58,689 bases of DNA from Acidobacteriota bacterium (GCA_028875575.1 JAPPDF010000013.1:1-58689); one strand, 5' to 3'. Positions 13,860 to 31,598 are shown, counted from the stretch's first letter. The notes: generated by a model from the letters alone, not told the origin. Made by a program: numbers and translations.

Positions 13860-14226
13860 CGAGCCTCGGAGACTGGACCCCCACCGGCTCGACTGTGGGC
13901 AAAATCTCCTAAGTGGCAATCTTGCCGATTCCGTCCCCCCCACCGGTTCGACTGCGGGCGGGGCCCTTGTCTCACCGACTCCCCCTCCAGGGGGGAGTGA
14001 TACTTGAGGCCAGCACAAGGCTCCTTGCCCGATTCCTGGGCGGGATGTAAACCATGTATGCGGTTTATTGTGTAAACCATGAATGGATTGCACAAAGCCG
14101 AGCCGGAAGGCGAAGGCTGATGCGGTGGGGGGCGAGGCTCGGCTCCGGACCGTGCGACAGGACGGCTCAAACCGGTTGCAACAGGGGTACTTCAAAAGCC
14201 AAGTTTCACCCCCTGAAGGCTCATCC
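13860..14226. repeat. Repeat mosaic upstream of PSCyt1 module 2
   Basis: No gene is convincing here. It contains two near-identical direct repeats of the type CACCGGYTCGACTGYGGGC (near 13879 and 13941). A block at 13943-13986 recurs at 58645-58689. A GC hairpin ACTCCCCCT-CC-AGGGGGGAGT is at 13978-13998. TGTAAACCATG occurs twice (near 14046 and 14071), and 14095-14135 recurs at 17-56. The hairpin lacks a following T run, so it is not a clear terminator. The region resembles accumulated dispersed repeats at an insertion boundary. Confidence 0.55.
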
Positions 14227-17200
14227 ATGAATCTTTCTTCTCCCCAGCCAACAAGAAACCGACCGACGAAGGCCGCGGGTTTATTTCTGAGCCTGGGTCT
14301 TTTCTTCTGGATCCCTCTGCCCGGGGCTGCTACCGACTCCGACGGCAGCGGCGAACTGCCGGAACAGCAGAAGTCCTTCCGGGAGAAGGTCCTCCCCGTC
14401 TTCCAGGAACACTGCCTGCGCTGTCATGGCGAGCAGCTGATGATCAAGGAGCTGGATCTCAGCAAGCTCTCAACCATCCTGAATGGCAGCGAGTCGGGTC
14501 CGGTGGTGGTGCCCGGCCGGCCGGCGGAGAGCAAGCTCTACCGGTTGATCGAAAGCGGTTCGATGCCTCCCGACCTGGACGGAGGTCTTCCGGAGGCGCA
14601 AAGGGCAACCATCAAGGCCTGGATCGAGAGCGGCCTGGCGAGCGGGTTGGAAGAGTCAGCCGCAAGCCAGGCCCTCAATCAGCACGACGTGATCCCGATT
14701 CTGCTGCGTCACTGCACCACCTGTCACGGGCTGCGCCGCCAGGGCAATGACCTCGATCTGAGGAGCCGGGCGTCCATGGTCCAGGGTGGGAAATCAGGTC
14801 CGGCATTGATTCCGGGAAAACCGGACCAGAGCCTGATGGTGGAGATGATCCGTTCGGGCAAGATGCCTCCCAAGAAACGGCTCTTTGAAGTCGGGGTGAC
14901 CCCCGTTTCGGATTCCGACCTGGAAAAGCTGCGGCAGTGGATCCTGCAGGGCGCTCCGGAAGAGGACATCAAGCCCGATGTTGCCGGCACCGAGCCCGAT
15001 CCTCTGGTGAGCGACCGGGACCGCCAGTTCTGGGCCTTCCAGCCGCCCAGGCAGGTCGCGCCGCCTGTGGTCGAACATGGGAATCGAGCGGTCAATCCCA
15101 TCGACGCCTTCGTATCGAGAAAACTGGAAGACCGGGGATTGTCTCTGTCGGCCGAAGCCGATCGGTTGACACTGATCCGGCGAGCCTCCCTGGACCTGAC
15201 CGGCCTGCCTCCGACGCCCCCCGAGGTCCGGAGGTTCTTGGAAGACCGGGAGCCGCGTGCCTACGAGAGACTCATCGACCGCTTGCTGGAGTCAGGCCGC
15301 TACGGGGAGCGCTGGGGACGTTACTGGCTGGACGTGGCCGGCTACTCCGACCACGAGGGCGGGAAGGTGAATGCCAACGGACCCGGCAGGAAGCATGCAT
15401 GGCGGTATCGGGACTACGTGATCCGGTCCCTGAACGCCGACAAACCCTACGACCGCTTTCTCATGGAGCAGATCGCCGGAGACGAGCTGGTCGATTACGA
15501 AACGACTCCGGTGATTACCCGGGAGATGGTCGACAACCTGATCGCCACCGGTTTCCTGCGCATGGGGCCTGACAGCACCGGCTACGAGCTGAGCTTCGTG
15601 GAGGACCGGTTCGACGTCATTGCCGATGAAATCGAGATCCTGGGGACGGGCATCATGGGCATGACGCTCCAATGCGCCCGCTGCCACAGCCACAAGTTCG
15701 ATCCCATTCCCCAGCGGGACTACTTCCGGCTTGCCGATCTGCTGAAGGGGGCTCTGGACGAGTTCGACTGGTTGGCGGGAACGCCGATCAGCGAGGTGGT
15801 GAAGTTCGAGCAGCGGATTCTGCCCTATGTGCCTCCCATGACCAATCCCTTGCGACTGCTGGAGCAGGAAAAAGAGCGCAAAGCCAGGAACGAGGTCCTG
15901 GAAGAGCAGGTCAAGGAGTTGCAGCAGGCGTTGGAGGAAAGGGGCAGGGACTTGAGGGACCGCGTTCTGGAGGAGCGGTTGGATCAGATTGCGCCCGCCC
16001 TGGCCCAGGATCTGAGGCTATTGCTCAAGACTCCGGAAGAAGATCGGAACAGCGGGCAGAAGTCCCTGGCCCAGGAGTACATGCAACTGTTGACCGTCAC
16101 CGCCAACGAGTTGAAGGAGCGGGACGCCGTCTACCGACGGGAGGCTGGGAAGCTGGAGCGCAAGATCGCCTGGCTGCAACACCGGCAGGAGGCGGAGCCG
16201 CGTATTCGGGCGCTCTGGGACCGGGGAGCCCCCTCTCCCACCTATCTGCTCCGGCGGGGCGATTACTTGAGTCCGGGCCGGCTGGTCGGTCCGGGGGTGC
16301 CCTCGGTGCTGACTGACGGCAGAACTCCGTTCCGGGTGGAGCCTCCATGGCCGGGATCCCAAAAGACCGGAAGGCGCCTGGCCCTGGCCAAGTGGTTGGT
16401 GGACCGGGACCATCCCCTGACGGCGCGGGTCATGGTCAACCGCATCTGGAAGCACCATTTCGGCCGGGGGATCGTCGAGACCCTGGGCAATTTCGGAAAG
16501 TCGGGCGCCCGCCCCACCCATCCGGAGCTGCTGGACTGGCTGGCGGTGGAGTTCATGAATCGTAGCTGGAGCATGAAAGCCATCCACCGATTGATGATGA
16601 CCTCCAGGACCTATCGCCAATCCTCCAGGGTAGGTCCCGAGCAGAAGCGGCTCGACCCCGAAAACCGGTTCCTGTCCCGATGGCCCTTGAAGCGTATGGA
16701 CGGCGAAGCCCTCCGCGACAGCCTGCTTCGGGTCAGTGGCCGCCTGGATGAGACTCCTTACGGCCCCCCGGATCCGGTTTTTGTCAGAGCCGACGGGCTC
16801 TCCACCGCCTACGAGGGGGAAAGAGGCTGGCGGCGGAGCATCTATCTGCGGCAACTGCGCATGAACAGCCCCACCACCCTGGACCTGTTCGACTATCCCA
16901 CCATGAATCCCAATTGCACCGAACGGGCACAGTCCACCGTAGCCCCGCAGGCTCTTCACCTGCTCAACGACGCCACCATCCGCCGGCTGGCGGCCGACCT
17001 GGCGCGGCGGGTGGAGAAGGAAGCGGGGGACAGCCTGCCAGCCCAGGTGGAACTCATGTACTGGATCGTGTTGAGCCGGCCCCCCGCTGCCGAAGAGCAG
17101 AGGTTGAGTCTGCAGTCCTTCCGGAGCGCCTGGAAGGAGCTGGGGAACGGCAACCGGAAGCGGCAACAGGTGTTGGCCAAGCTGGCCCATACGCTCTATA

Positions 17201-17229
17201 ATTCGGCAGCTTTCGTCTATATCGATTGA
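14227..17229 (+). CDS. Tandem PSCyt1-DUF1549-DUF1553 protein (module 2)
   Basis: A 1000-residue exported protein. The ATG at 14227 is preferred because it leads into a basic then hydrophobic signal region ending near PLPGAAT; the frame is open further upstream only through repeat sequence. Two PSCyt1 domains are present, with CLRCH from Cys63 and CTTCH from Cys163. DUF1549 carries CARCHSHKFDPIP (from Cys483), and DUF1553 the C-terminal [10 protein letters not shown] and [10 protein letters not shown] motifs. A Glu/Lys/Arg-rich stretch of coiled-coil type lies between the two DUFs. The stop overlaps the TTG start of the DUF1501 gene. It is closely related to the copy at 28533-31598. Confidence 0.88.
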   Translation: MNLSSPQPTRNRPTKAAGLFLSLGLFFWIPLPGAATDSDGSGELPEQQKSFREKVLPVFQEHCLRCHGEQLMIKELDLSKLSTILNGSESGPVVVPGRPAESKLYRLIESGSMPPDLDGGLPEAQRATIKAWIESGLASGLEESAASQALNQHDVIPILLRHCTTCHGLRRQGNDLDLRSRASMVQGGKSGPALIPGKPDQSLMVEMIRSGKMPPKKRLFEVGVTPVSDSDLEKLRQWILQGAPEEDIKPDVAGTEPDPLVSDRDRQFWAFQPPRQVAPPVVEHGNRAVNPIDAFVSRKLEDRGLSLSAEADRLTLIRRASLDLTGLPPTPPEVRRFLEDREPRAYERLIDRLLESGRYGERWGRYWLDVAGYSDHEGGKVNANGPGRKHAWRYRDYVIRSLNADKPYDRFLMEQIAGDELVDYETTPVITREMVDNLIATGFLRMGPDSTGYELSFVEDRFDVIADEIEILGTGIMGMTLQCARCHSHKFDPIPQRDYFRLADLLKGALDEFDWLAGTPISEVVKFEQRILPYVPPMTNPLRLLEQEKERKARNEVLEEQVKELQQALEERGRDLRDRVLEERLDQIAPALAQDLRLLLKTPEEDRNSGQKSLAQEYMQLLTVTANELKERDAVYRREAGKLERKIAWLQHRQEAEPRIRALWDRGAPSPTYLLRRGDYLSPGRLVGPGVPSVLTDGRTPFRVEPPWPGSQKTGRRLALAKWLVDRDHPLTARVMVNRIWKHHFGRGIVETLGNFGKSGARPTHPELLDWLAVEFMNRSWSMKAIHRLMMTSRTYRQSSRVGPEQKRLDPENRFLSRWPLKRMDGEALRDSLLRVSGRLDETPYGPPDPVFVRADGLSTAYEGERGWRRSIYLRQLRMNSPTTLDLFDYPTMNPNCTERAQSTVAPQALHLLNDATIRRLAADLARRVEKEAGDSLPAQVELMYWIVLSRPPAAEEQRLSLQSFRSAWKELGNGNRKRQQVLAKLAHTLYNSAAFVYID

Positions 17230-18755
17230 ACCGTCCAACCGTGAAACAAGCACCCGACCGATCGCCTCAGTCCATGACCCGCCGACACTTTTTCGGGCGG
17301 GTCTCCGACGGCATCTACGGAGTGGCCCTGACCCACCTGCTGACGGGCGATCTCTTCGGCGTGTCCGGCTTGACGGGCGGGTCCGAGTCTCCGGCTCCCG
17401 GCCGCGGCGGCATCTACGATGTCGCCCCCAGGAAGCCCCACTTCGAGGCCAAGGCCAAGTCGGTCATCCTGCTGTTCATGAACGGCGGCCCCAGCCCCAT
17501 GGACCTGCTGGATCCCAAGCCGATGCTGGACAAGCACCACGGAGAGCCCTATTTCGACCAGGTTGCCGTGGACGTGCCCTCGCCTCAGCAGGCCGGCGGG
17601 TTGCTGCGCAGTCCCTTCAAGTTCGCCCAGCACGGCCAGTCCGGCACCTGGGTCTCCGAGGCCATGCCCCATGTCGCCCGGCGGGTGGACGACATCGCGG
17701 TCATCCGGTCCATGCACACCACCAGTCCGGCCCATCCGGCGGCGCTCTACAAGTTTCAAGGCGGTCGCATGCTGCCGGGCATCCCGACCCTGGGGGCCTG
17801 GGTGGTCTACGGACTGGGAACCGAGAACCGGAACCTGCCGGCCTTCGTGGTGCTGGATGATCCCCAGGGCCTGCCCATCAACGGCATCGCCAACTGGCAG
17901 TCGGGGTTTCTGCCTCCCATCTACCAGGGAACCCGCTTGCGCTCGGTAGGCGATCCCCTGCTGAACCTGCGGCCCGAGGTCGCCGAGCCCACCGCCCTGG
18001 TGAAGATGGGAACCCGTCTCCGCCAACAGCTCGATCGCATCCACAGGAGAGACCGTCCCGGCCTGCCCGAGCTGGATGCCCGTATCGCCAGCTACGAGCT
18101 GGCCGCGCGCCTGCAGTTGGAAGCCACCGATGCCCTGGACCTGTCCCGGGAAAGCCCCAGGACCCTGGAAATGTATGGCGTCGGAAGAAAGCCTGCGGTG
18201 GTGGGGAAGACCCACGTCAACCCGGGTCCCGACAACTACGGCCGCCGCTGCATCATGGCCCGGCGGCTGGTGGAGCGCGGCGTCCGCTACGTCCAGGTAT
18301 GCGTGAACAGTCAGATCTGGGACTCCCATTCCCACCTGGAGGCTGACCTGAGGTCCTGTTGCGACCGAACCGATCAACCGGTGGCAGCTCTATTGGCGGA
18401 CTTGAAGGAGCGGGGATTGCTGGACAGCACCCTGGTGATCTGGGCCGGCGAGTTCGGCCGCCATCCCATCGCCCAGATCATGCCCAAGCAGGGTGTGGCC
18501 GGCCGGGACCACAATCCCCGGGGCTTCAGCCTCTGGATGGCCGGTGGAGGAGTCAAGGGAGGAACGGTCTACGGCGCCACCGATGAATTCGGCTATCGGG
18601 CCGTGGAAAACCCCGTCAGCATCGAGGACCTGCACGCCACCATCCTGCACCTGCTGGGCCTGCACCACGAAGAGCTCTTTTTCGAACGCAGCGGGCTCAG
18701 GGAAAAGATCACCTTCAACTTCGAACCCAGGGTCGTTCGCGAAATCCTGGCGTGA
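17226..18755 (+). CDS. DUF1501 protein, Tat-exported (module 2)
   Basis: A DUF1501 protein of 509 residues if it starts at the TTG at 17226, which overlaps the upstream TGA by two bases; GTG at 17241 or ATG at 17274 are alternatives. The twin-arginine segment MTRRHFFGRVSDGI matches that of its paralogue on the minus strand at 26955-28472. Conserved motifs are MNGGPSPMDLLDPKP, IRSMHTTSPAHP, LGTENRNLPAFVV and WAGEFGRHP...GRDHN. It probably folds and is exported by Tat and works with the PSCyt1 partner. Function is unknown beyond family membership. Confidence 0.87.
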   Translation: MNRPTVKQAPDRSPQSMTRRHFFGRVSDGIYGVALTHLLTGDLFGVSGLTGGSESPAPGRGGIYDVAPRKPHFEAKAKSVILLFMNGGPSPMDLLDPKPMLDKHHGEPYFDQVAVDVPSPQQAGGLLRSPFKFAQHGQSGTWVSEAMPHVARRVDDIAVIRSMHTTSPAHPAALYKFQGGRMLPGIPTLGAWVVYGLGTENRNLPAFVVLDDPQGLPINGIANWQSGFLPPIYQGTRLRSVGDPLLNLRPEVAEPTALVKMGTRLRQQLDRIHRRDRPGLPELDARIASYELAARLQLEATDALDLSRESPRTLEMYGVGRKPAVVGKTHVNPGPDNYGRRCIMARRLVERGVRYVQVCVNSQIWDSHSHLEADLRSCCDRTDQPVAALLADLKERGLLDSTLVIWAGEFGRHPIAQIMPKQGVAGRDHNPRGFSLWMAGGGVKGGTVYGATDEFGYRAVENPVSIEDLHATILHLLGLHHEELFFERSGLREKITFNFEPRVVREILA

Positions 18756-20027: not shown

Positions 20028-20507
20028 ATGAAGCTCATTACCTTGCTTGCATGCCTGGTGTTTGGGTTTGGTGCTGCTTTGGATTCCGAGGCGCAAGTTA
20101 CTTCCATCAAGTCCAAGATCAACAAAGTGATCTACGAGAAGCAGCCGGATGGCTCAGAGAGCGTGGTGGCGCGAGCGAAGGGGACCTATATGCGTTTCTC
20201 CTCCGGATCCACGTCCTTTCAGTATCGCCTCGTGTATGGAGATGTGAACAAGGCGGGACTGGACCAGAAGTTGCCGACGCCGCTTCCTGAGGTAATCCCT
20301 GTAAAGAAAGGCTCCCAGGAATTAATAAACATCAAGAAGACATTGACCACGAGTAACCTCAGACATGAGTGGACGTTCTACGACATCCAGTACACCCGGC
20401 CCAATTCCTCGAAGCCACGCTCACTCGTCGCCAAGGAGAGGCTGTTGATCAGGGTGAACTCTCCCCGGACAATGGAGCCTACCGGTCCTACCGGGACAAC
20501 GAAGTAA
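20028..20507 (+). CDS. Small secreted protein of unknown function
   Basis: A 159-residue protein that I do not recognise. The ATG at 20028 follows GGAGGG at 20015-20020 with ideal spacing and starts a good Sec signal (MKLITLLACLVFGFGAALDSEAQ). The mature part is about 137 residues, Lys/Ser/Thr-rich, with many beta-type alternations (TYMRFSSGSTSFQYRLVYGDV) and no cysteines. A candidate promoter lies at 19886-19914. The gene ends 32 bases before the large VWA gene; the stop codon sits inside AGTAATAGCCTCTAC, the inverse of a sequence at 18833. It may be cotranscribed with the VWA gene. Confidence 0.7.
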   Translation: MKLITLLACLVFGFGAALDSEAQVTSIKSKINKVIYEKQPDGSESVVARAKGTYMRFSSGSTSFQYRLVYGDVNKAGLDQKLPTPLPEVIPVKKGSQELINIKKTLTTSNLRHEWTFYDIQYTRPNSSKPRSLVAKERLLIRVNSPRTMEPTGPTGTTK

Positions 20508-20539: not shown

Positions 20540-23500
20540 GTGTCTCTCGGAAGAGATTTCCTCCCTGGTGCAATTCTGGCACTAACCCTGGTTGCCGGTT
20601 GGTTGGCAGCCGCCTTGGCGCTGATCCCGGCGACCGCGGCTACCCAGCCCCAAGAAACCGAAAAAGTCCGCGGCCAGTCCTCGTCCGGATTCACCCTCAA
20701 GGTGCCGGTAGAAGTGGTGGTGGTCAATGCCATTGTCACCGACCGGGACGGGAAGCCCATTACCGATCTGACCGCAGACGACTTCGAAGTCTTCGAAAAC
20801 CGCAAGAAGCAGACCATCCAGTCGTTTTCCCAGGAAATCTACCAGAACCCGCAAAGCTCCCTGACCTGGGGCAGCGCGGTCGGCGCGGAGGAACCGGTGC
20901 CCGAGGCGTCCCCCGAAAAGCCCCGTCTGCTGAGCCTGGTCATCGACGACCTCACCTACCCCCCGACGGGTATGCTTAGACGCACCATCCAGGCCGTTCG
21001 CGGATTCGTGGAAAGGGGGTTGAGAGCACAAAACCACATATCCATCATGACGGCCTCCCGCGGCTACTTCGTCCCCTTCACCCAGGACAGGGAACTGCTG
21101 CTGGCCGAGATCGACAGGATCTACAAGAAGCTGGATTTCACGCCGTCGATGAACCGACCGGGATGCGTCAGCATGACCGATGCTCAAGCCGAGGACATCC
21201 ATGTCGTTTCGCCCACGCCGGGCAGCCGGGCCTTCGACGTGGCCATGGCTGAAGCCGAAGAATGCGGGGTAGGCAGCTCGGAGAATGGACTGGGGGGCGG
21301 TTCAATCGGCCTCGGTTCGCCCCAGCAGGTCGTTGAAAACTATGTGCGCACCGTGGCGTTGCAGCACCTGTCTCTTAAAAAGGGACGCACCCGGCGCTTG
21401 CTGGATGTTCTGCGGGGGCACATCCGTTCTCTTGGACCGGTGGAGGCCCAAAAATCCCTGATTCTGCTTTCCGGAGGCTTCCTGCACCGGGCGCTCCGCT
21501 ATGACCTGGAGCGTCTGGTCGACATGGCGCTCAAGACCGGAACAATCTTCAACACTATCCGGGCCACCGGTCTGGAAACCAGCCCCATGAACGACGTCAG
21601 CAAAGACGTCACCGTCAACAGCATTCTCCGGCTGGAAAAGGCCTTGCTGGTCGCGGAGGACCGCAGGCAAAAAGGGATAGCCCTCGATTACCTGGCCAGG
21701 GCAACGGGAGGCACCTACTTCAAAGACAACAACGACCTGGTGGCGGGTCTGAGAAAGGTGGTGGACCAGCAATTCTCCTACTATATCCTGAGCTACGCCA
21801 CCCCTCCCAAGAAACCCGATGGGCGCTACTACAGGCTTCGAGTGAGAGTCTCACGGCCCGGAGTCCGGGTCACCCACCGCGAGGGCTTCTATGCCCCCAA
21901 GGAGCGATTGTCCCCGGAAGAACAGAAGAAGAAGGAAATGCTGGAAGCCATGCGGGCACCCACCAATCTCAGGGAAATCCCGCTGCAGATGTTCTACCAC
22001 GGCTCGCGCCTGCATGGAGACACCTACCGGTTGGAGCTCGTGACCCGCCTGGGCTTTGAGGATCTCCCCTTTCTTGTAGAGGAGGGCAAGCGGATCAATC
22101 GGATCAACCTGGCTGTGGTTGCCTTCGATGCTCAGGAGAAGTATGTCGGCGGCGACGAAAAAGCCTGGAACTTCAAGCTCAGCGACAGCAGCTATCAGAC
22201 TCTTCTCAAATCAGGCCTGACCTCCAAGGTCGTGCTGGAGGTTCCAGCGGGACGGTACCAGGTCAAGGTTGCGGCGCGGGAGAACCTCAACGCCGGACTG
22301 GGATCGCTCCGTCGAACCGTTGAGGTGCCCCTGCCGTCGGACCAGGACACCATGGGAACCCTGGGAAAGACGGTGCTCCGGGGACTGCATGCATCCAGGC
22401 AACACCGCGATCTGAGTCTGGATTTCAAGGCCAACTTTTTCTACCAGGAGTCCGACCGGGCTCTGGTCCTCATCACGGCCAGGGTCTCCTACGGGTCGGA
22501 GGTCAATACCCCGAAAATCTGGTTGCCGGGGAAAGACCTTCGCCTGATGGGGGTTGCCTATTCTGACGACGGGCAGGCGGAATCGGTATTCAGCCAGACG
22601 CTCCCGCTTGTGTACGGAAAGGCGGATTCGGCCGTGCAGGGATTTCTCAAGCTGAAGCCGGGCAAGTATCGCATCAAGCTGGTGGCCGCGGACCGCCAGG
22701 GCAGATTGGCCACGACCGAACAGGCGCTGTGGATCCCGGCCCTTCCCCGGGATGCGCTCATGATCAGCGGCCTGGTCTTGAGTCAGGACCTGGAGCCCTT
22801 TTCCCCGGCGGCGGCCGGAATGCAAGTGCCGGAAGCCCGCTGGCTGTTTCACCGAGGGTTCCGGGTGAAGCCGGCGGTCAGCAACGAAATTGTTCCTCCC
22901 CAACCTCTGGCCCTTTTCTACAAACTCTACAACGCCTCCAAGCTGGAGGACGGCAATCTCACGGCTCGCGTCCAGGCGGTCAAGGACACCGGCGAGGCCG
23001 TCGACTTTCCGCCGATCGCACTGGACCGCAACCACCTGGAAGAACGGGCGCCCGGCCAGGTTGCCGTGGGCTTCAAGCTGTCCACCCAATCCCTGAGCCC
23101 GGGTAAATACCGAATCGAGATTACGACCGAAGAGTCGGGCAGCGGCCGCACCGCCATCACCGAGACCGATTTCGTGGTGACGCAAGGCTCGGAAACGGCC
23201 ACATCCGGGGAGGCGCCGTCGCCGGTCATTGCCGGTCAGACCCAGGCTGAAGAAACATCCGTTTCGGAAGCGGTGGTTGGCCTCGACCTGAAGAAGATCC
23301 GGGACAGCCTGGAGATCCCCCGGTCCTCGGGCCGCACGACTCCCGCATTGGCCTACCGGTTCCGCGGCGACATCCTGGCCTGCGCCAACGACCGGGGAGA
23401 ACTCGGCTACAACCCCGATCATCCGGGGGAATGCGGCGATCTGCGCGGGAACCGAGTGCAGTCGCACAGGTTGAGGGGGATGAATCTCTTTGGAGCCAAC

Positions 23501-24838
23501 CTGAGCGGCATGGATCTCCGGAAGGCCGACCTTCGGGATGCGGTTCTGCTAAGAGCCGACCTGACCCAAGCCAGGCTCTGGGAGGCCGACTTGCGAGGGG
23601 CCGATCTTCGAGGGGCCAAACTGACGGGTGCCGAACTGATCAAAGCCAGGCTGGACGGCGCGCGACTGCAAGGAGCCGATCTGAGCGATGCCAGCCTGAC
23701 GCAGGCCAGCCTGAAACGCGCCGACTTGCTGGGCGCCGATTTGCGGCGCGCCATCCTGAAAGATGCCGACTTGAACCGGGCCACTCTGCAGGTGGCCGAC
23801 CTGTCGGAAGCGGTCCTGTTCGGCAGCGATCTGAGGCGGGCCGACCTTCGGGGGGCAAGGATGACCCAAGCCGCTCTGGTCGATGGAAAGGCGGCCAACC
23901 GCTCTATTTTAATTTCCTTTAACGGCAACATCAGAATCGGCAAGACACGGTTTGCCGGAGCCCGCTACGACGAGAGCTCCCAATTGCCGTTCGACTCCCA
24001 ACAGGCAGTGACCAGGGAAATGCAGCCCGCCGACACCCCCTCCGCATACCGTCGCCCCGAGTTCATGATGGATGCCGGGTCCGAGGAGTTTACCGTCAGC
24101 GGCTCCGCACCGCCCACGCTTGCCTTGGGTCAGCCGCATGGGGTGCCGACCGACGCCGAATGGCCGGACTTTCTGGATGCCGTTCGCCACAGGATCGACG
24201 GAACCTCCCAAAACCTGCCCAACTTCGTGTGTCGCCGCCGGACAGAACGATTCGAAAGGCTGTTTCGAGGTTGGCAGGAGAAGGACCGGCTCCAGGAAGA
24301 GCTCATGTTCACGAACGGAGAGGAGAGCTATCAGCCGGTGGAGGGGCAAAAGGCATCGGGCAGCCAGGATGGCACTTATTCAGTCGGGGAATTTGCCGCC
24401 GCTCTCCGCAATGTGTTCGCTCCTGAAAGCGGGGCTTCCTTCCGCCTGGAGGGCGCCGAGGAGATCGCGGGGCGTCAAACCGTACGGGTGGCCTATCGGA
24501 TTCCGCGAGAGGCTTCCTCCCTTCAACTGTCCTACCAGGGCAATGCTTTGCGGGTGGCCTACCGCGGATTGTGCTGGATCGATGTCAACTCCTACCAGGT
24601 TGTCAGACTCATCAAGGAGATCGTGGATCTTCCCCAGGACTTTCCCATCAAGACGTCGGAGATGAGCATCGCCTACGACCGGATCCGGATCGGGGAGAGC
24701 CGGCACTGGCTTCCGGTCAGGGCTCAGTTCAACATGTCGGTCGGCGTCCTGCAGAGTGCCCGGGTCCATACTCGAAATATCATCCGGTTCACCGACTACC
24801 GACAATTCGAAACCGACGTGAAGCTGCTGCTCGAGTAG
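20540..24838 (+). CDS. VWFA-related / pentapeptide-repeat fusion protein
   Basis: A 1432-residue exported protein. The GTG at 20540 is preferred: AGGGG lies upstream and a signal segment follows (FLPGAILALTLVAGWLAAALAL). Residues about 55-100 hold the acidobacterial opening VVVNAIVTDRDGKPITDL...DFEVFE, followed by a VWA-like domain to about 420 (LLSLVIDDLTYPPTG, ILLSGGFLHR, YYILSYATP) with a degenerate metal-binding site. A long beta-rich middle region follows. Residues about 975-1117 are an uninterrupted run of nearly thirty A(D/N)LXX-type pentapeptides, predicted to form a right-handed beta helix. The last 300 residues form another domain (LPNFVCRRRTERFER, YRGLCWIDVNSYQVV) seen in acidobacterial exported proteins. 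Role unknown; a surface or periplasmic binding scaffold is inference. Confidence 0.85.
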   Translation: MSLGRDFLPGAILALTLVAGWLAAALALIPATAATQPQETEKVRGQSSSGFTLKVPVEVVVVNAIVTDRDGKPITDLTADDFEVFENRKKQTIQSFSQEIYQNPQSSLTWGSAVGAEEPVPEASPEKPRLLSLVIDDLTYPPTGMLRRTIQAVRGFVERGLRAQNHISIMTASRGYFVPFTQDRELLLAEIDRIYKKLDFTPSMNRPGCVSMTDAQAEDIHVVSPTPGSRAFDVAMAEAEECGVGSSENGLGGGSIGLGSPQQVVENYVRTVALQHLSLKKGRTRRLLDVLRGHIRSLGPVEAQKSLILLSGGFLHRALRYDLERLVDMALKTGTIFNTIRATGLETSPMNDVSKDVTVNSILRLEKALLVAEDRRQKGIALDYLARATGGTYFKDNNDLVAGLRKVVDQQFSYYILSYATPPKKPDGRYYRLRVRVSRPGVRVTHREGFYAPKERLSPEEQKKKEMLEAMRAPTNLREIPLQMFYHGSRLHGDTYRLELVTRLGFEDLPFLVEEGKRINRINLAVVAFDAQEKYVGGDEKAWNFKLSDSSYQTLLKSGLTSKVVLEVPAGRYQVKVAARENLNAGLGSLRRTVEVPLPSDQDTMGTLGKTVLRGLHASRQHRDLSLDFKANFFYQESDRALVLITARVSYGSEVNTPKIWLPGKDLRLMGVAYSDDGQAESVFSQTLPLVYGKADSAVQGFLKLKPGKYRIKLVAADRQGRLATTEQALWIPALPRDALMISGLVLSQDLEPFSPAAAGMQVPEARWLFHRGFRVKPAVSNEIVPPQPLALFYKLYNASKLEDGNLTARVQAVKDTGEAVDFPPIALDRNHLEERAPGQVAVGFKLSTQSLSPGKYRIEITTEESGSGRTAITETDFVVTQGSETATSGEAPSPVIAGQTQAEETSVSEAVVGLDLKKIRDSLEIPRSSGRTTPALAYRFRGDILACANDRGELGYNPDHPGECGDLRGNRVQSHRLRGMNLFGANLSGMDLRKADLRDAVLLRADLTQARLWEADLRGADLRGAKLTGAELIKARLDGARLQGADLSDASLTQASLKRADLLGADLRRAILKDADLNRATLQVADLSEAVLFGSDLRRADLRGARMTQAALVDGKAANRSILISFNGNIRIGKTRFAGARYDESSQLPFDSQQAVTREMQPADTPSAYRRPEFMMDAGSEEFTVSGSAPPTLALGQPHGVPTDAEWPDFLDAVRHRIDGTSQNLPNFVCRRRTERFERLFRGWQEKDRLQEELMFTNGEESYQPVEGQKASGSQDGTYSVGEFAAALRNVFAPESGASFRLEGAEEIAGRQTVRVAYRIPREASSLQLSYQGNALRVAYRGLCWIDVNSYQVVRLIKEIVDLPQDFPIKTSEMSIAYDRIRIGESRHWLPVRAQFNMSVGVLQSARVHTRNIIRFTDYRQFETDVKLLLE

Positions 24839-26954: not shown

Positions 26955-28472
26955 TCAAGCCAAAATTTCCCGAACGATCCGGGGTTCGTGGGTGGAGGTC
27001 AGCTTTTCGGTCAATCCGTTGCGCTCGAAGAAGAGCTCTTCGTGGTGCAGGCCCAGCAGGTGCAGGATGGTGGCGTGCCAGTCGGCCACGCTGACGGGGT
27101 TTTCGACGGCCCGGTAGCCGAAGTCGTCGGTGGTGCCGAAGACCGTTCCTCTCTTGACTCCTCCGCCGGCCATCCAGACCGTGAAGGCGTAGGGATTGTG
27201 ATCCCGGCCGGCGTCCTTGCCGTCGGCATGCTGGGCGATGGGCAGGCGCCCGAACTCACCGTTCCAGATCAGCAGGGTGCTGTCCAGCAGGCCACGCTGC
27301 TTCAGGTCATGGATCAGGGCGGCGACGGGTTGGTCGGTCTTCTTGCAGGCCGCGAGAAGGTCGTTTTCGATGTGGTTGTGCATGTCCCAGATCTGGTTGT
27401 TGATATAGATCTGCACAAAGCGCACTCCACGCTCCACCAGGCGGCGGGCCATGATGCAGCGCCGGGCATAGGAGTCGGGTCCGCCGATGGGGTGTGTCCG
27501 CCCCCGGTACTTGGACTTCACCCCCACGCCGTACATGTCCAGCGTCTTCCGGCTTTCCTGGGAGAGGTCCAGCGCATCGGTGGCCGCCAATTGCATGCGG
27601 GCCGCCAGCTCGTAGCTGGCGATGCGGGCATCCAGCCGAGGTTGACCCGGGCGGCCCCGTTTGTGGATATGGTCCAGCCGGCGCAACAGATCCTGGCTGG
27701 CCTTGACGAACGGGCGGGGCTCCTCGACCTCGGAACGCAGATTCAGCAGGGGAGACCCGACGGAACGCACCGGAGTTCCCTGATAGAGCGGAGGCAGAAA
27801 TCCGGCCTGCCAGCCCTGCGAGCCGTTCACCGGCACCCCCATGGGGTCTTGCAGCACCACGTAGGCGGGAAGGTTCTGACTTTCGCTTCCCAGTCCGTAG
27901 GTTACCCAGGAGCCCAGGCTGGGGTGGCCCGGGAACATCTGACCCGAGTTCGCCATGAAGCAGGCGCCTCCATGATCGGGCGTGGTGGTGACCATGGAGC
28001 GAATAAAGGCCAGCTCGTCCACCTGGCCGGCCAGATGCGGCAGGAGTTCCGACAGCCAGATGCCCGACTGCCCGTGGCGGGCGAACTTGAAGGGACTGCG
28101 CATCAAGGCCCCGGCGTCTTCGAGGTCCTGCACGTCGGCGGCGGCCATCTTGTCCAGGTAGGGCTGTCCGTGATGCTTGTCCAGCAGGGGCTTGGGGTCG
28201 AACAGGTCCATCTGGCTGGGGCCGCCGTTCATGAAGAAGTGAATCACGGCCTTGGCCCTGGGCTCGAAATGGGGGCGGCGGGGCTTGAGGTCGAACACCC
28301 GAGGGGCGGGGGGCGTGTTCCGGCCGTCGGACGGGGAGGCGTCTGCGAAAAGCTCCCGGTTGAACAGATGGGCCAGGGCCGCACCTGCGATACCGTCGGT
28401 CATGTTGGAGAAGAAACCGCGGCGGGAGAGCAGGTGTCCCATGGGCGATTTCCTGCGGGAATGAGGATCCAT
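26955..28472 (-). CDS. DUF1501 protein, Tat-exported (module 3)
   Basis: A 505-residue DUF1501 protein starting at the ATG at 28472. The twin-arginine segment is LSRRGFFSNMTDGIAG. It shares long stretches with the copy at 17226: MNGGPSQMDLFDPKPLLDKH, YVVLQDPMGVPVNG, IASYELAARMQLAATDAL and WNGEFGRLP...GRDHNP. It follows its PSCyt1 partner by 60 bases in the same operon. Modules 2 and 3 point at each other, so they form an inverted pair of paralogous blocks around 18.8-26.9 kb. Function is unknown beyond the family. Confidence 0.9.
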   Translation of the reverse strand: MDPHSRRKSPMGHLLSRRGFFSNMTDGIAGAALAHLFNRELFADASPSDGRNTPPAPRVFDLKPRRPHFEPRAKAVIHFFMNGGPSQMDLFDPKPLLDKHHGQPYLDKMAAADVQDLEDAGALMRSPFKFARHGQSGIWLSELLPHLAGQVDELAFIRSMVTTTPDHGGACFMANSGQMFPGHPSLGSWVTYGLGSESQNLPAYVVLQDPMGVPVNGSQGWQAGFLPPLYQGTPVRSVGSPLLNLRSEVEEPRPFVKASQDLLRRLDHIHKRGRPGQPRLDARIASYELAARMQLAATDALDLSQESRKTLDMYGVGVKSKYRGRTHPIGGPDSYARRCIMARRLVERGVRFVQIYINNQIWDMHNHIENDLLAACKKTDQPVAALIHDLKQRGLLDSTLLIWNGEFGRLPIAQHADGKDAGRDHNPYAFTVWMAGGGVKRGTVFGTTDDFGYRAVENPVSVADWHATILHLLGLHHEELFFERNGLTEKLTSTHEPRIVREILA

Positions 28473-28532
28473 AGGGTCTACCGTGTTGGGGGACGGCGCT
28501 GCCGGAGGCCGCAGCTCCGAGGCTCGGCCGGT

Positions 28533-31500
28533 TCAATCGATATAAAGAAACCCAGCCGAGTTTAAAAGAGTGTGACAGAACTTGGCAAGCGCCTGCTCGG
28601 CAACTTCCTTTCCCCCGTTGTACTCCACGCTTTTTTTGAGCTTTTCCAACGCTGGCCGGCTCACGGATTGCTCCTCGGGTGTCGGCGGCCGGTTGAGCAC
28701 GATCCAGTAGGCCTGTTCGATCCGCCGGGCCGGGTCGCTGCCGGCCTCTCTTTGCACCCTCTCGGCCAGGGAGTCGGCCAGCTTTCGCACGGTCGGGTCG
28801 TTCAGCAGGTGCAGAGCCTGGGGGACCACCGTGGACTCGACGCGCTCCAGGCAGTTGGGCGTCATCTCGGGAAAGTCGAAGGTGTCCAGGATGGTGGGGT
28901 TGCTGGTGCCCATGCGGTGGCTGGTCTGCTGGGCGATATAGATGCTCCGCCGCCATCCCCCGGGGGTCGGTACCGCGGTGGCCAGGCCGTCCTTCCGCTG
29001 CAGGACCAGGTCGGGCAGTCCTCCCGGCGTCTGGTCCAACCGGTTCGAGATCAGGAAAAGGGTGTCCCTCAGGACCTCGGCGTCCATGCGGCGCAAGGGC
29101 ATCCGGGAGAGCCGGAGATTCTCGGGATCCAGTTGTTCGTGCAGCGGCGTCACTCTCGAGCTCTGCCGGTAGGTGGCCGAGGTCATGATCAGACGATGCA
29201 TGGCCTTGAGGCTCCAGTCCTGCCGGATGAACTCCAGAGCCAGCCAATCCAGCAGTTCGGGATGGGTAGGCCGGGCGCCGGTTCGCCCGAAATTTCCCAG
29301 CGTGCTGACAATTCCGCGACCGAAGTGGTGCTTCCAGATGCGGTTGACCATCACCCGGGCCGTAAGGGGATGGTCGGGGGCCACCAGCCAGCGGGCCAGA
29401 GCCAGGCGGCGGCCGGTCTTTTGAGCTCCTTCCCAGGGGGGAGTGATTTTCAGCGGAGAATGTCCCCGGGTCAGAACTGCCGGCACTCCCGGTTCCACCC
29501 AACGGCCGGGACTCATGGGATCACCCCGCCTCAGGATGTAGGTGGGCGAAGGGCTGCCGCGATCCCAAAGAGCCCGAATCAGGGGTTCGGGTCTGAGCTT
29601 GGCCCTGAGCAGCTTGACCTTCCCGGCGGTTTCTTCCGATGCCTTGCGGTAGTCCGGATCGATGTCTTCCAGGTCACTGAAGCGAATCTTCAGACCCTGT
29701 TCATACTTGCCGGCCAACTCCTTTTGGGCCGGGGTTCGATCCTCCGGTGGGGTATCCAGCATTTCGCGCAGGTCCGGTCGAAGCTCCTCGGGCAGCTCGG
29801 CCAGCCTCAGGTTGATGAGTCTCTCCTCCACCGGCTTGGCCTTCTGCTTGAGCGCGGCTTGCAGGGATTCGATTTCGCCGTTGATCTTGCCGTTGTGGGA
29901 TTCGCGCCGGGTACTCTCTTCATGGAGCCGGAAGGGATTGGCCATCGGGGTGAAGAAGGGCAACACCCGTGTCTCATTGGCCAGCATGGGACGGTTGGGA
30001 TCGTCGGTAATGGCCGGGGGCAGCCAGTCGTGCTCGTCGAAGGCCCCTTTGAAGAGAGCGGCCAGCCGGTAGTAGTCCCGCTGCGGGATGGGATCGAACT
30101 TGTGGTTGTGGCAACGGGCGCAGCCCATGGTCAGGCCCATCAGGCTGGAGCTGAAGATCTGGATCTGCTCGCTGATGACCTGGATGCGGTGGGACACGAA
30201 GTTGGTCAAGCGGTTGCCGGTCACGTCGTTGACCATTCTCAGGAAACCGGTGGCGATCAGGTTGTCCATGGCTTCCCGAGTGAGGACGGGCTGCCCGGAC
30301 AGGTCGGCAAGCTCGTCGCCGGCCAGTTGTTCCAGCAGGAAGCGATCGTAGGGCTTGCCGGCATTGAGCGAGCCAATGACGTAGTCACGGTAGCGCCAGG
30401 CGTGGCGGCGGTCGGAATAACCCACCAGGTCCAGCCAGTGCCGACCCCAGCGCTCGCCGTAGCGGGGTGAGTCCAGCAACCGCTCGATGAGAGCTTCGTA
30501 GGCGGCGGGGTCGGAGTCGGCCAGGAACCGCCGGACCTCTTCGGGTTCCGGCGGCAGCCCCGTCAGGTCGAAGCTGGCGCGCCGGATCAGGGTCAGGCGG
30601 TCGGCCTCGGGAGAGAGGCGGAGCCCTTTTTCCCGGAGCCTGGCGGCAATGAAAGCGTCTACCGGATTGCGCAGCCGGGACGGCTCGGTCGAGCCGGGCA
30701 GGGGCGGCACGGTCGCTCTCGGCGGCTGGAAGGACCAGAAGCGACGGTCCTCCTCGCTTACCAGTGGATCGGATCCGTTCTCTTCATCCCGATCCGTCCC
30801 GTTCACTTCCGGGGCGCCCAGGGAGATCCAGCCGACAAGCTGCTCCAGCCCCCGGGCACTCATGGGCCGCAGGCTGGCTTCTACCTCCCGTTCGCTGGGA
30901 GGCATTTCCCGGGCCCGGATCCGTTGAACGATCAGGCTCTCTTCCGGTTTGCCGGGCACGATGGCCGGACCCGACTTGCCACCCTTCAGCATGGCGGCCT
31001 TGGTGCGAAGGTCTAGGCCTGCTTCCTGTATGCGCTGGCCGTGACAGGCGGTGCAGTGCAGCAGCATCAGGGGGATGACGTCCCGCTGGCTGACCGTTGG
31101 AAGCTGGGCTTGGGAGGCATGCGGATGCTCCGTCGAACCGGCAACAGGCAGCGAGGCAATCCAGGCCTGGAGGGTGGCCAGCTCCGATGGCGAGGGTTCT
31201 GTCTGTTTGTCCGGCGGCATCAGCCCCTCGTGGACCCTCCGGTAGAGCGGACTCTCCTGGGGCCGGCCGGGAACCAGCACGCTGCCCGAGGCGCTGCCCT
31301 GGAAAAGGGCGGCTTCCGTGCTCAGGTCCAGTCCGGCCAGCCGGGCTTCGGAGTTGTGGCAGCGCAGGCAGTGGGCCCGAAGGATGGGAAGCAGGTCGGA
31401 TTGAAACCGGGGAGGGGGGGCAGGGGAAACCTGTTCCGAAGTTGCCGCGGGGGCTGCTTGGACCGGCGTCAAGCCGGCCAGGATCAGGAGCAGGGTGGCC

Positions 31501-31598
31501 AGGCCGGTTGCCGGCCGCACCGCTGAAACGGGAAGAGAGCGACGCTCTGTGTTCCGTTTCCAGCCCATTCTAACGGGGAGTATCTCCATTTCCAGCAC
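28533..31598 (-). CDS. Tandem PSCyt1-DUF1549-DUF1553 protein (module 3)
   Basis: A 1021-residue protein starting at GTG 31598, supported by GGGAGG seven bases upstream. The N-terminus is long and basic before a hydrophobic signal ([19 protein letters not shown]). Two PSCyt1 domains carry CLRCH (from Cys77) and CTACH (from Cys182); a third motif [13 protein letters not shown] lies in DUF1549. DUF1553 contains [15 protein letters not shown] and [13 protein letters not shown], nearly identical to module 2. It is predicted to be a periplasmic or surface multiheme-type protein acting with the DUF1501 partner just downstream. The biochemical reaction is not established for the family. Confidence 0.9.

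What the first reader, a model, noticed from the sequence alone, without database searches (positions are those of the whole stretch)
20540..24838. VWFA-like, pentapeptide-repeat and acidobacterial C-terminal domain in one 1432-residue protein
Nearly thirty uninterrupted pentapeptides (about residues 975-1117) are inserted between a long VWA-type exported region and a separate C-terminal domain beginning near LPNFVC. Each part occurs in known proteins, but I do not know this order as a described architecture. The beta-helix could be a rigid rod holding two binding domains apart.
Basis: partly seen in the sequence, partly recalled or inferred. Interest (0 to 1): 0.7.

Follow-up and report, generated by a model that had tools for sequence, protein, structure and literature searches.

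The report
Exported VWA–pentapeptide–C-terminal-domain protein
The gene is real and encodes a large exported, probably disulfide-bonded protein in which a stack of pentapeptide repeats joins a von Willebrand-type part to a widespread but unnamed acidobacterial domain; this order was found only in one small family of relatives (the named ones sponge-associated), although the two end domains have also been joined in the opposite order in another family.

Summary
Window 20540-24838 (+) encodes one 1432-aa protein: signal peptide, acidobacterial VWFA domain (TIGR03436, E 5e-53), three Ig-like sandwiches, a capped pentapeptide beta-helix (28 pentads, 24 without a flaw), and a C-terminal domain (CTD). 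It is not an assembly join: a 76-77% identical full-length paralogue lies elsewhere in the genome, between alaS and leuS, and the same architecture occurs in other assemblies, including a single-contig chromosome. Six cysteines, one pair each in VWA, cap and CTD, are kept down to 46% identity, so an extracytoplasmic, disulfide-bonded protein is likely. The architecture was found in the genus and one sister genus only; the named relatives come from sponge-associated lineages. The CTD has no Pfam, NCBIfam or PDB relative, yet occurs in 86 of 396 Acidobacteriota genomes, alone or with ankyrin, TPR or pentapeptide repeats. In another family CTD and VWFA are fused in the reverse order through a Pro/Ala linker, with a second CTD gene alongside. 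The functional pair is therefore probably VWFA+CTD, and the beta-helix (about 34 A) a short rigid linker. Biochemical role unknown; ligand binding by the VWA is doubtful because its MIDAS motif is degenerate.

The parts
20540..20638 (+). signal peptide, residues 1-33 (GTG start; AxA-type site ATA|ATQ)
   Evidence: only hydrophobic segment of the protein; start aligned with the ATG of orthologues; cleavage site judged by eye
20693..21898 (+). VWFA domain (TIGR03436), residues 52-453, with degenerate MIDAS and a Cys-bearing insert (C209, C242)
   Evidence: AlphaFold model, VIA Z 13 to integrin I and pilus-adhesin VWA chains
21905..22339 (+). Ig-like beta sandwich 1, residues 456-600
22340..22744 (+). 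Ig-like beta sandwich 2, residues 601-735, absent from generic acidobacterial VWFA proteins, present in paralogue C3 (L120)
22745..23209 (+). Ig-like beta sandwich 3, residues 736-890
23342..23455 (+). N-terminal cap of the repeat block, residues 935-972, with Cys948 and Cys965
   Evidence: same motif and the same 17-residue Cys spacing in P0003
23465..23884 (+). 28 pentapeptide repeats, residues 976-1115, about 7 turns of a right-handed beta-helix
23885..23995 (+). broken last coil or C-cap (IRIGKTRFAGARYDESSQLPF), about residues 1116-1152
   Evidence: alignment; cap reading is inference
24140..24838 (+). C-terminal domain (CTD), residues 1201-1432, LPxF(V/I)C...G(x)CWID motif, Cys1231 and Cys1345
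20028..20507 (+). upstream 159-aa protein with N-terminal hydrophobic stretch, no family; conserved at this locus in L068 (84.5%)

Best explanation
It is a Sec-exported protein of the periplasm or cell surface. A VWFA plus three-Ig part and a C-terminal LPxF domain are two functionally paired modules, and a disulfide-capped pentapeptide beta-helix of about seven turns joins them as a short stiff spacer. It most likely arose by fusion of a long acidobacterial VWFA protein (like paralogue C3/L120) with a stand-alone cap-pentapeptide-CTD protein (like P0003); proteins of both kinds are still encoded in this genome. SHOWN: domain content, intact frame, conserved Cys pairs, purifying selection, two paralogous lineages, independent VWFA+CTD fusion in the reverse order, degenerate MIDAS. 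INFERRED: export, disulfides, spacer role, fusion origin. GUESSED: that the protein acts as an envelope or surface scaffold that contacts a partner protein or an envelope or sponge ligand.
For: Domains. Single N-terminal hydrophobic segment. Cys 209/242, 948/965 and 1231/1345 in every complete member including G065 (46% identity); 1345 is lost in two near-identical partial copies. Chassis 35% identical to C3/L120 over 893 aa including Ig2; cap-PPR 39% and CTD 32% identical to P0003. Reverse-order fusion CTD(193-501)-Pro/Ala linker-VWFA(588-996, TIGR03436 5.5e-49) in G102, conserved in many genomes of that genus, with a second CTD gene next to it in all six loci read. The protein is only 77-83% identical where neighbouring genes are about 92-96% identical, as expected of an exposed protein. 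dN/dS about 0.32 overall.
Against: No ligand, partner or localisation is known. CTD model confidence is low (mean pLDDT 47 for that construct), so its fold is open. In 41 other CTD loci a VWFA domain was found only in the fused one, so the pairing is not general. CTD also occurs with TPR and ankyrin repeats. Seven turns are a short spacer. The fusion origin rests on similarity, not on a tree of both halves.
Confidence: 0.5

Rival explanations
1. Host-interaction protein of a sponge symbiont: a surface protein whose VWA/Ig head touches sponge matrix or immune cells, in the manner proposed for eukaryote-like repeat proteins.
For: Named relatives come from sponge studies or lineages: the jk18x MAG series of Ircinia, GTDB lineage VXMN01 found in a deep-sea sponge. 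Sponge-associated Acidobacteriota are rich in repeat proteins and ankyrin proteins of sponge symbionts alter phagocytosis (PMC8163846). Fast evolution. Pilus adhesins and integrin I domains are the best structural matches.
Against: Both modules are widespread in non-sponge Acidobacteriota. The MIDAS is degenerate. No secretion or anchoring signal beyond a signal peptide. Pentapeptide repeats are not among the repeat classes reported there.
Confidence: 0.25
2. Periplasmic envelope-maintenance protein: the CTD is a LolA-like lipid- or lipoprotein-handling domain and the VWFA/Ig part docks to an envelope complex.
For: CTD has a helix plus long antiparallel strands in the model. Best of five profile comparisons was PF17131 LolA_like, p 0.004 but probability only 9%. 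L135 couples a sub-threshold LolA_like region (E 0.057) with a CTD.
Against: No significant family match for any of 31 CTD members. The profile test also failed to join LolA with LolA_like, so it is insensitive.
Confidence: 0.2
3. The pentapeptide block works as in Qnr/MfpA, as a DNA mimic acting on gyrase.
For: Fold matches to Qnr and MfpA structures.
Against: All Qnr/MfpA NCBIfam scores are far below cut-off. The block is net positive (20 D+E, 24 R+K), and the protein carries a signal peptide and conserved Cys pairs.
Confidence: 0.02
4. Chimeric ORF from a misassembly or frameshift.
For: None found in the window; the copy in L068 is disrupted.
Against: Full-length paralogue and independent assemblies including a complete chromosome.
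Confidence: 0.01

Closest known systems
TIGR03436 acidobact_VWFA (NCBIfam subfamily domain)
   Same: N-terminal half matches over the full model, well above cut-off
   Different: MIDAS residues degenerate, extra Ig2 domain, and a pentapeptide plus CTD tail that neither the model nor generic members have
Pentapeptide repeat proteins (PF00805; NP275/NP276, HetL, Rfr23, lumenal Rfr32-type)
   Same: Right-handed quadrilateral beta-helix; Z 24 to 2j8k
   Different: Embedded in a 1432-aa exported protein, with its own Cys-bearing cap
CTD-VWFA fusion proteins of genus g12, family f9 (L136, L140-L145)
   Same: Same two end domains in one protein
   Different: Reverse order, Pro/Ala linker instead of pentapeptides, no Cys in the LPNF motif
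Paralogue C3/L120 (1231-aa ORF)
   Same: VWFA plus three Ig-like domains, 35% identity over 893 aa
   Different: Weak TPR-like tail instead of cap-pentapeptide-CTD
P0003 (G000:C80)
   Same: Signal peptide, same Cys cap, pentapeptides, same CTD
   Different: No VWFA or Ig part; longer repeat block
Pilus adhesins PitA/SpaC and integrin I domains
   Same: VWA flanked by Ig-like modules; Z about 13
   Different: Fold resemblance only; canonical MIDAS and pilus anchoring not present or not shown

Membership tests
TIGR03436 acidobact_VWFA | curated HMM cut-off (81.25 bits) | tested here: met
   180.8 bits, residues 52-453
Metal-binding VWA domains (classical MIDAS) | DxSxS motif and Asp of the third loop | tested here: not met
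   IDDLTYP and LLSGGF, against DTSTS/DTSPS/DTSNS and SDGD/SDGG/TDGV in the three short VWFA paralogues of the genome. TIGR03436 itself does not require it.
Pentapeptide repeat family PF00805 | tandem A(D/N)LXX and beta-helix fold | tested here: met
   E 2.7e-36, 24 perfect pentads, model and structural matches
Qnr/MfpA gyrase-protecting pentapeptide proteins | equivalog cut-off and acidic DNA-mimic surface | tested here: not met
   48 bits against 240 for Qnr; net charge +4
LolA / LolA_like lipoprotein carriers (for the CTD) | sequence profile and half-barrel fold | tested here: inconclusive
   no Pfam hit in 31 members; weak profile match; low-confidence model
VWA pilus adhesins | VWA plus Ig-like domains, MIDAS, sorting/anchor signal | tested here: not met
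   fold part resembles, but MIDAS degenerate and no C-terminal hydrophobic anchor
Extracytoplasmic disulfide-bonded proteins | signal peptide and conserved paired cysteines | tested here: met
   actual bonds not testable here

The most novel reading that the evidence does not exclude
The LPxF CTD is an undescribed, phylum-wide exported domain of Acidobacteriota that works together with the VWFA family (large in this phylum), as one surface recognition or envelope system. The two have been fused at least twice in opposite orders, and sponge-symbiont relatives built a pentapeptide beta-helix in between as a rigid linker.
Probability: 0.3. Interest if true: 0.6.

Novelty: new variant of a known kind. 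Interest (0 to 1): 0.45.

Why it matters
VWFA proteins are numerous in Acidobacteriota (15 above cut-off in this genome), and no paper on them was found in the library searched. The two opposite-order fusions single out the unnamed CTD as their likely partner and give a concrete target. The protein also shows a beta-helix used as an internal linker in an exported bacterial protein of a lineage reported from sponges.

Tried and rejected
Assembly or frameshift artefact: rejected. Widely annotated architecture: not found. In 299 class genomes full-length proteins were seen only in the genus and in G065 of the same family; seven other long pentapeptide ORFs of the phylum that I read carry no VWFA by inspection. 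Solved-structure sequence search for the CTD: nothing. Pfam on 31 CTD members: only scattered single hits. LolA profile comparison: insensitive. VWFA genes beside stand-alone CTD genes: only the fused L136 in 41 loci. Papers: none on Versatilivorator, TIGR03436 or VWA-pentapeptide proteins.

Full report
OBSERVATION. The reading frame 20540-24838 (+) is intact and gives 1432 aa. The frame is open back to 20369, but a 159-aa upstream gene ends at 20507 and GTG-20540 aligns with the ATG of the orthologues, so 20540 is the start. NCBIfam TIGR03436 matches residues 52-453; Pfam pentapeptide models match about 970-1120. In register there are 24 flawless pentads (996-1115) and four looser ones before them; shuffles give at most 4-5. 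After the repeats come a linker and the C-terminal domain.

NOT AN ARTEFACT. The same genome holds a second full-length copy (contig C36), 76-77% identical overall by alignment and 80% in the CTD, on the minus strand between alaS and leuS. In 299 genomes of the class, all six other members of the genus and one genome of a sister genus (G065, 46% identical full length) hold a match; several of these are cut at contig ends and one (G053/L068) is disrupted. One intact copy lies on a single-contig chromosome (OX638355.1). Named relatives are MAGs of Ca. Versatilivorator (Terriglobia), of the jk18x series from Ircinia sponges (PMC9531527) and of the VXMN01 records; GTDB lineage VXMN01 is reported from a deep-sea sponge (PMC12795557). 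That the window's own genome is from a sponge is inference.

ANATOMY. AlphaFold of residues 33-904 (mean pLDDT 65) gives a VWA fold and three Ig-like sandwiches; the best second-look matches are integrin alpha chains with I domains and the pilus adhesins PitA and SpaC for the VWA (Z about 13), and complement and GH2 Ig-like domains for the sandwiches. The pentapeptide block is predicted as the usual quadrilateral beta-helix (Z 24 to NP275-NP276). Seven turns of 4.8 A (textbook value) make about 34 A. The CTD model is of low confidence. Generic acidobacterial VWFA proteins lack the second sandwich; the C3 paralogue L120 has it.

CYSTEINES. The protein has exactly six cysteines, two in an insert of the VWA (209, 242), two in the N-cap of the repeat block (948, 965) and two in the CTD (1231, 1345). 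All are kept in G065 at 46% identity; only 1345 is missing, in two near-identical copies. P0003 has the cap pair with the same 17-residue spacing. With the single N-terminal hydrophobic segment this points to an exported, disulfide-bonded protein. The bonds themselves are inferred.

VWA SITE. Short VWFA paralogues of the same genome have DTSTS-type MIDAS motifs and SDGD in the third loop; the window protein has IDDLTYP and SGGF, as do long VWFA proteins in related form. Metal-dependent binding is therefore doubtful.

EVOLUTION. The tree separates two paralogous lineages, the window locus and the alaS-leuS locus, with the OX638355 copy outside both. The window locus is syntenic with Ca. Versatilivorator (L068), where flanking proteins are 93-96% identical and this protein about 81%; at the other locus neighbours are 92-94% and this protein 83%. 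dN/dS is 0.32 overall and under 0.6 in each module for the two copies. So the protein is constrained but evolves faster than its neighbours.

MODULES ELSEWHERE. The chassis VWFA+Ig is shared with L120, which ends in a weak TPR-like tail. The cap-pentapeptide-CTD part exists alone as P0003. The CTD is also fused to ankyrin repeats (L018) and TPRs (L133, L134), and occurs alone. It was found in 86 of 396 phylum genomes at E<=1e-8, with no Pfam, NCBIfam or PDB counterpart. In genus g12 of another family a CTD is fused N-terminally to a VWFA domain through a Pro/Ala-rich linker (L136: CTD 193-501, VWFA 588-996); the family is conserved and multi-copy in that genus, and all six loci read have another CTD gene next to it. 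Opposite-order fusion is the classical sign of functional pairing; here the pentapeptide helix stands where the other family has a flexible linker.

MECHANISM. Most likely the protein is an envelope or surface scaffold whose two paired end modules are held apart by the beta-helix. Which partner or ligand it meets is not known. A host-facing role and a LolA-like lipid-handling CTD are live rivals.

VERDICT. Real, undescribed in the sources searched, lineage-restricted architecture made of known parts plus one undescribed phylum-wide domain. New variant of a known kind; interest moderate, mainly for the VWFA-CTD pairing.

Noticed in passing
L136 613-4023 (-), L140-L145: CTD-VWFA fusion proteins in reverse order, each beside a second CTD gene.
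   Followed up: partly
L018 676-2184 (+) (G000:C101): Ankyrin repeats fused to the same CTD, in the window's genome.
   Followed up: no
L120 929-4621 (+) (G000:C3): 1231-aa ORF: VWFA plus three Ig-like domains with a weak TPR-like tail.
   Followed up: partly
window 21150-21270; L120; L122: Insert in long VWFA proteins with motif C(x)3(T/S)DxQ...C; a possible second site replacing the MIDAS.
   Followed up: no
L061 versus L062, VWA segment: Synonymous divergence 0.017 in the VWA part against 0.09-0.45 in the rest of the gene: recent recombination.
   Followed up: no
L068 7285-11159: The copy in Ca. Versatilivorator vitaminiformans is split between two frames and lacks about 125 residues: decay or MAG error.
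   Followed up: no
L064/L065 and L066/L067 contig starts: Both paralogues of SB0661 and of RHO1 break at the same residue (567; 635), as if the assembler met near-identical sequence there.
   Followed up: no
window 14083-18755 and 26955-31598: Two planctomycete-type PSD1/PSCyt plus DUF1501 gene pairs in opposite orientation flank the gene.
   Followed up: no
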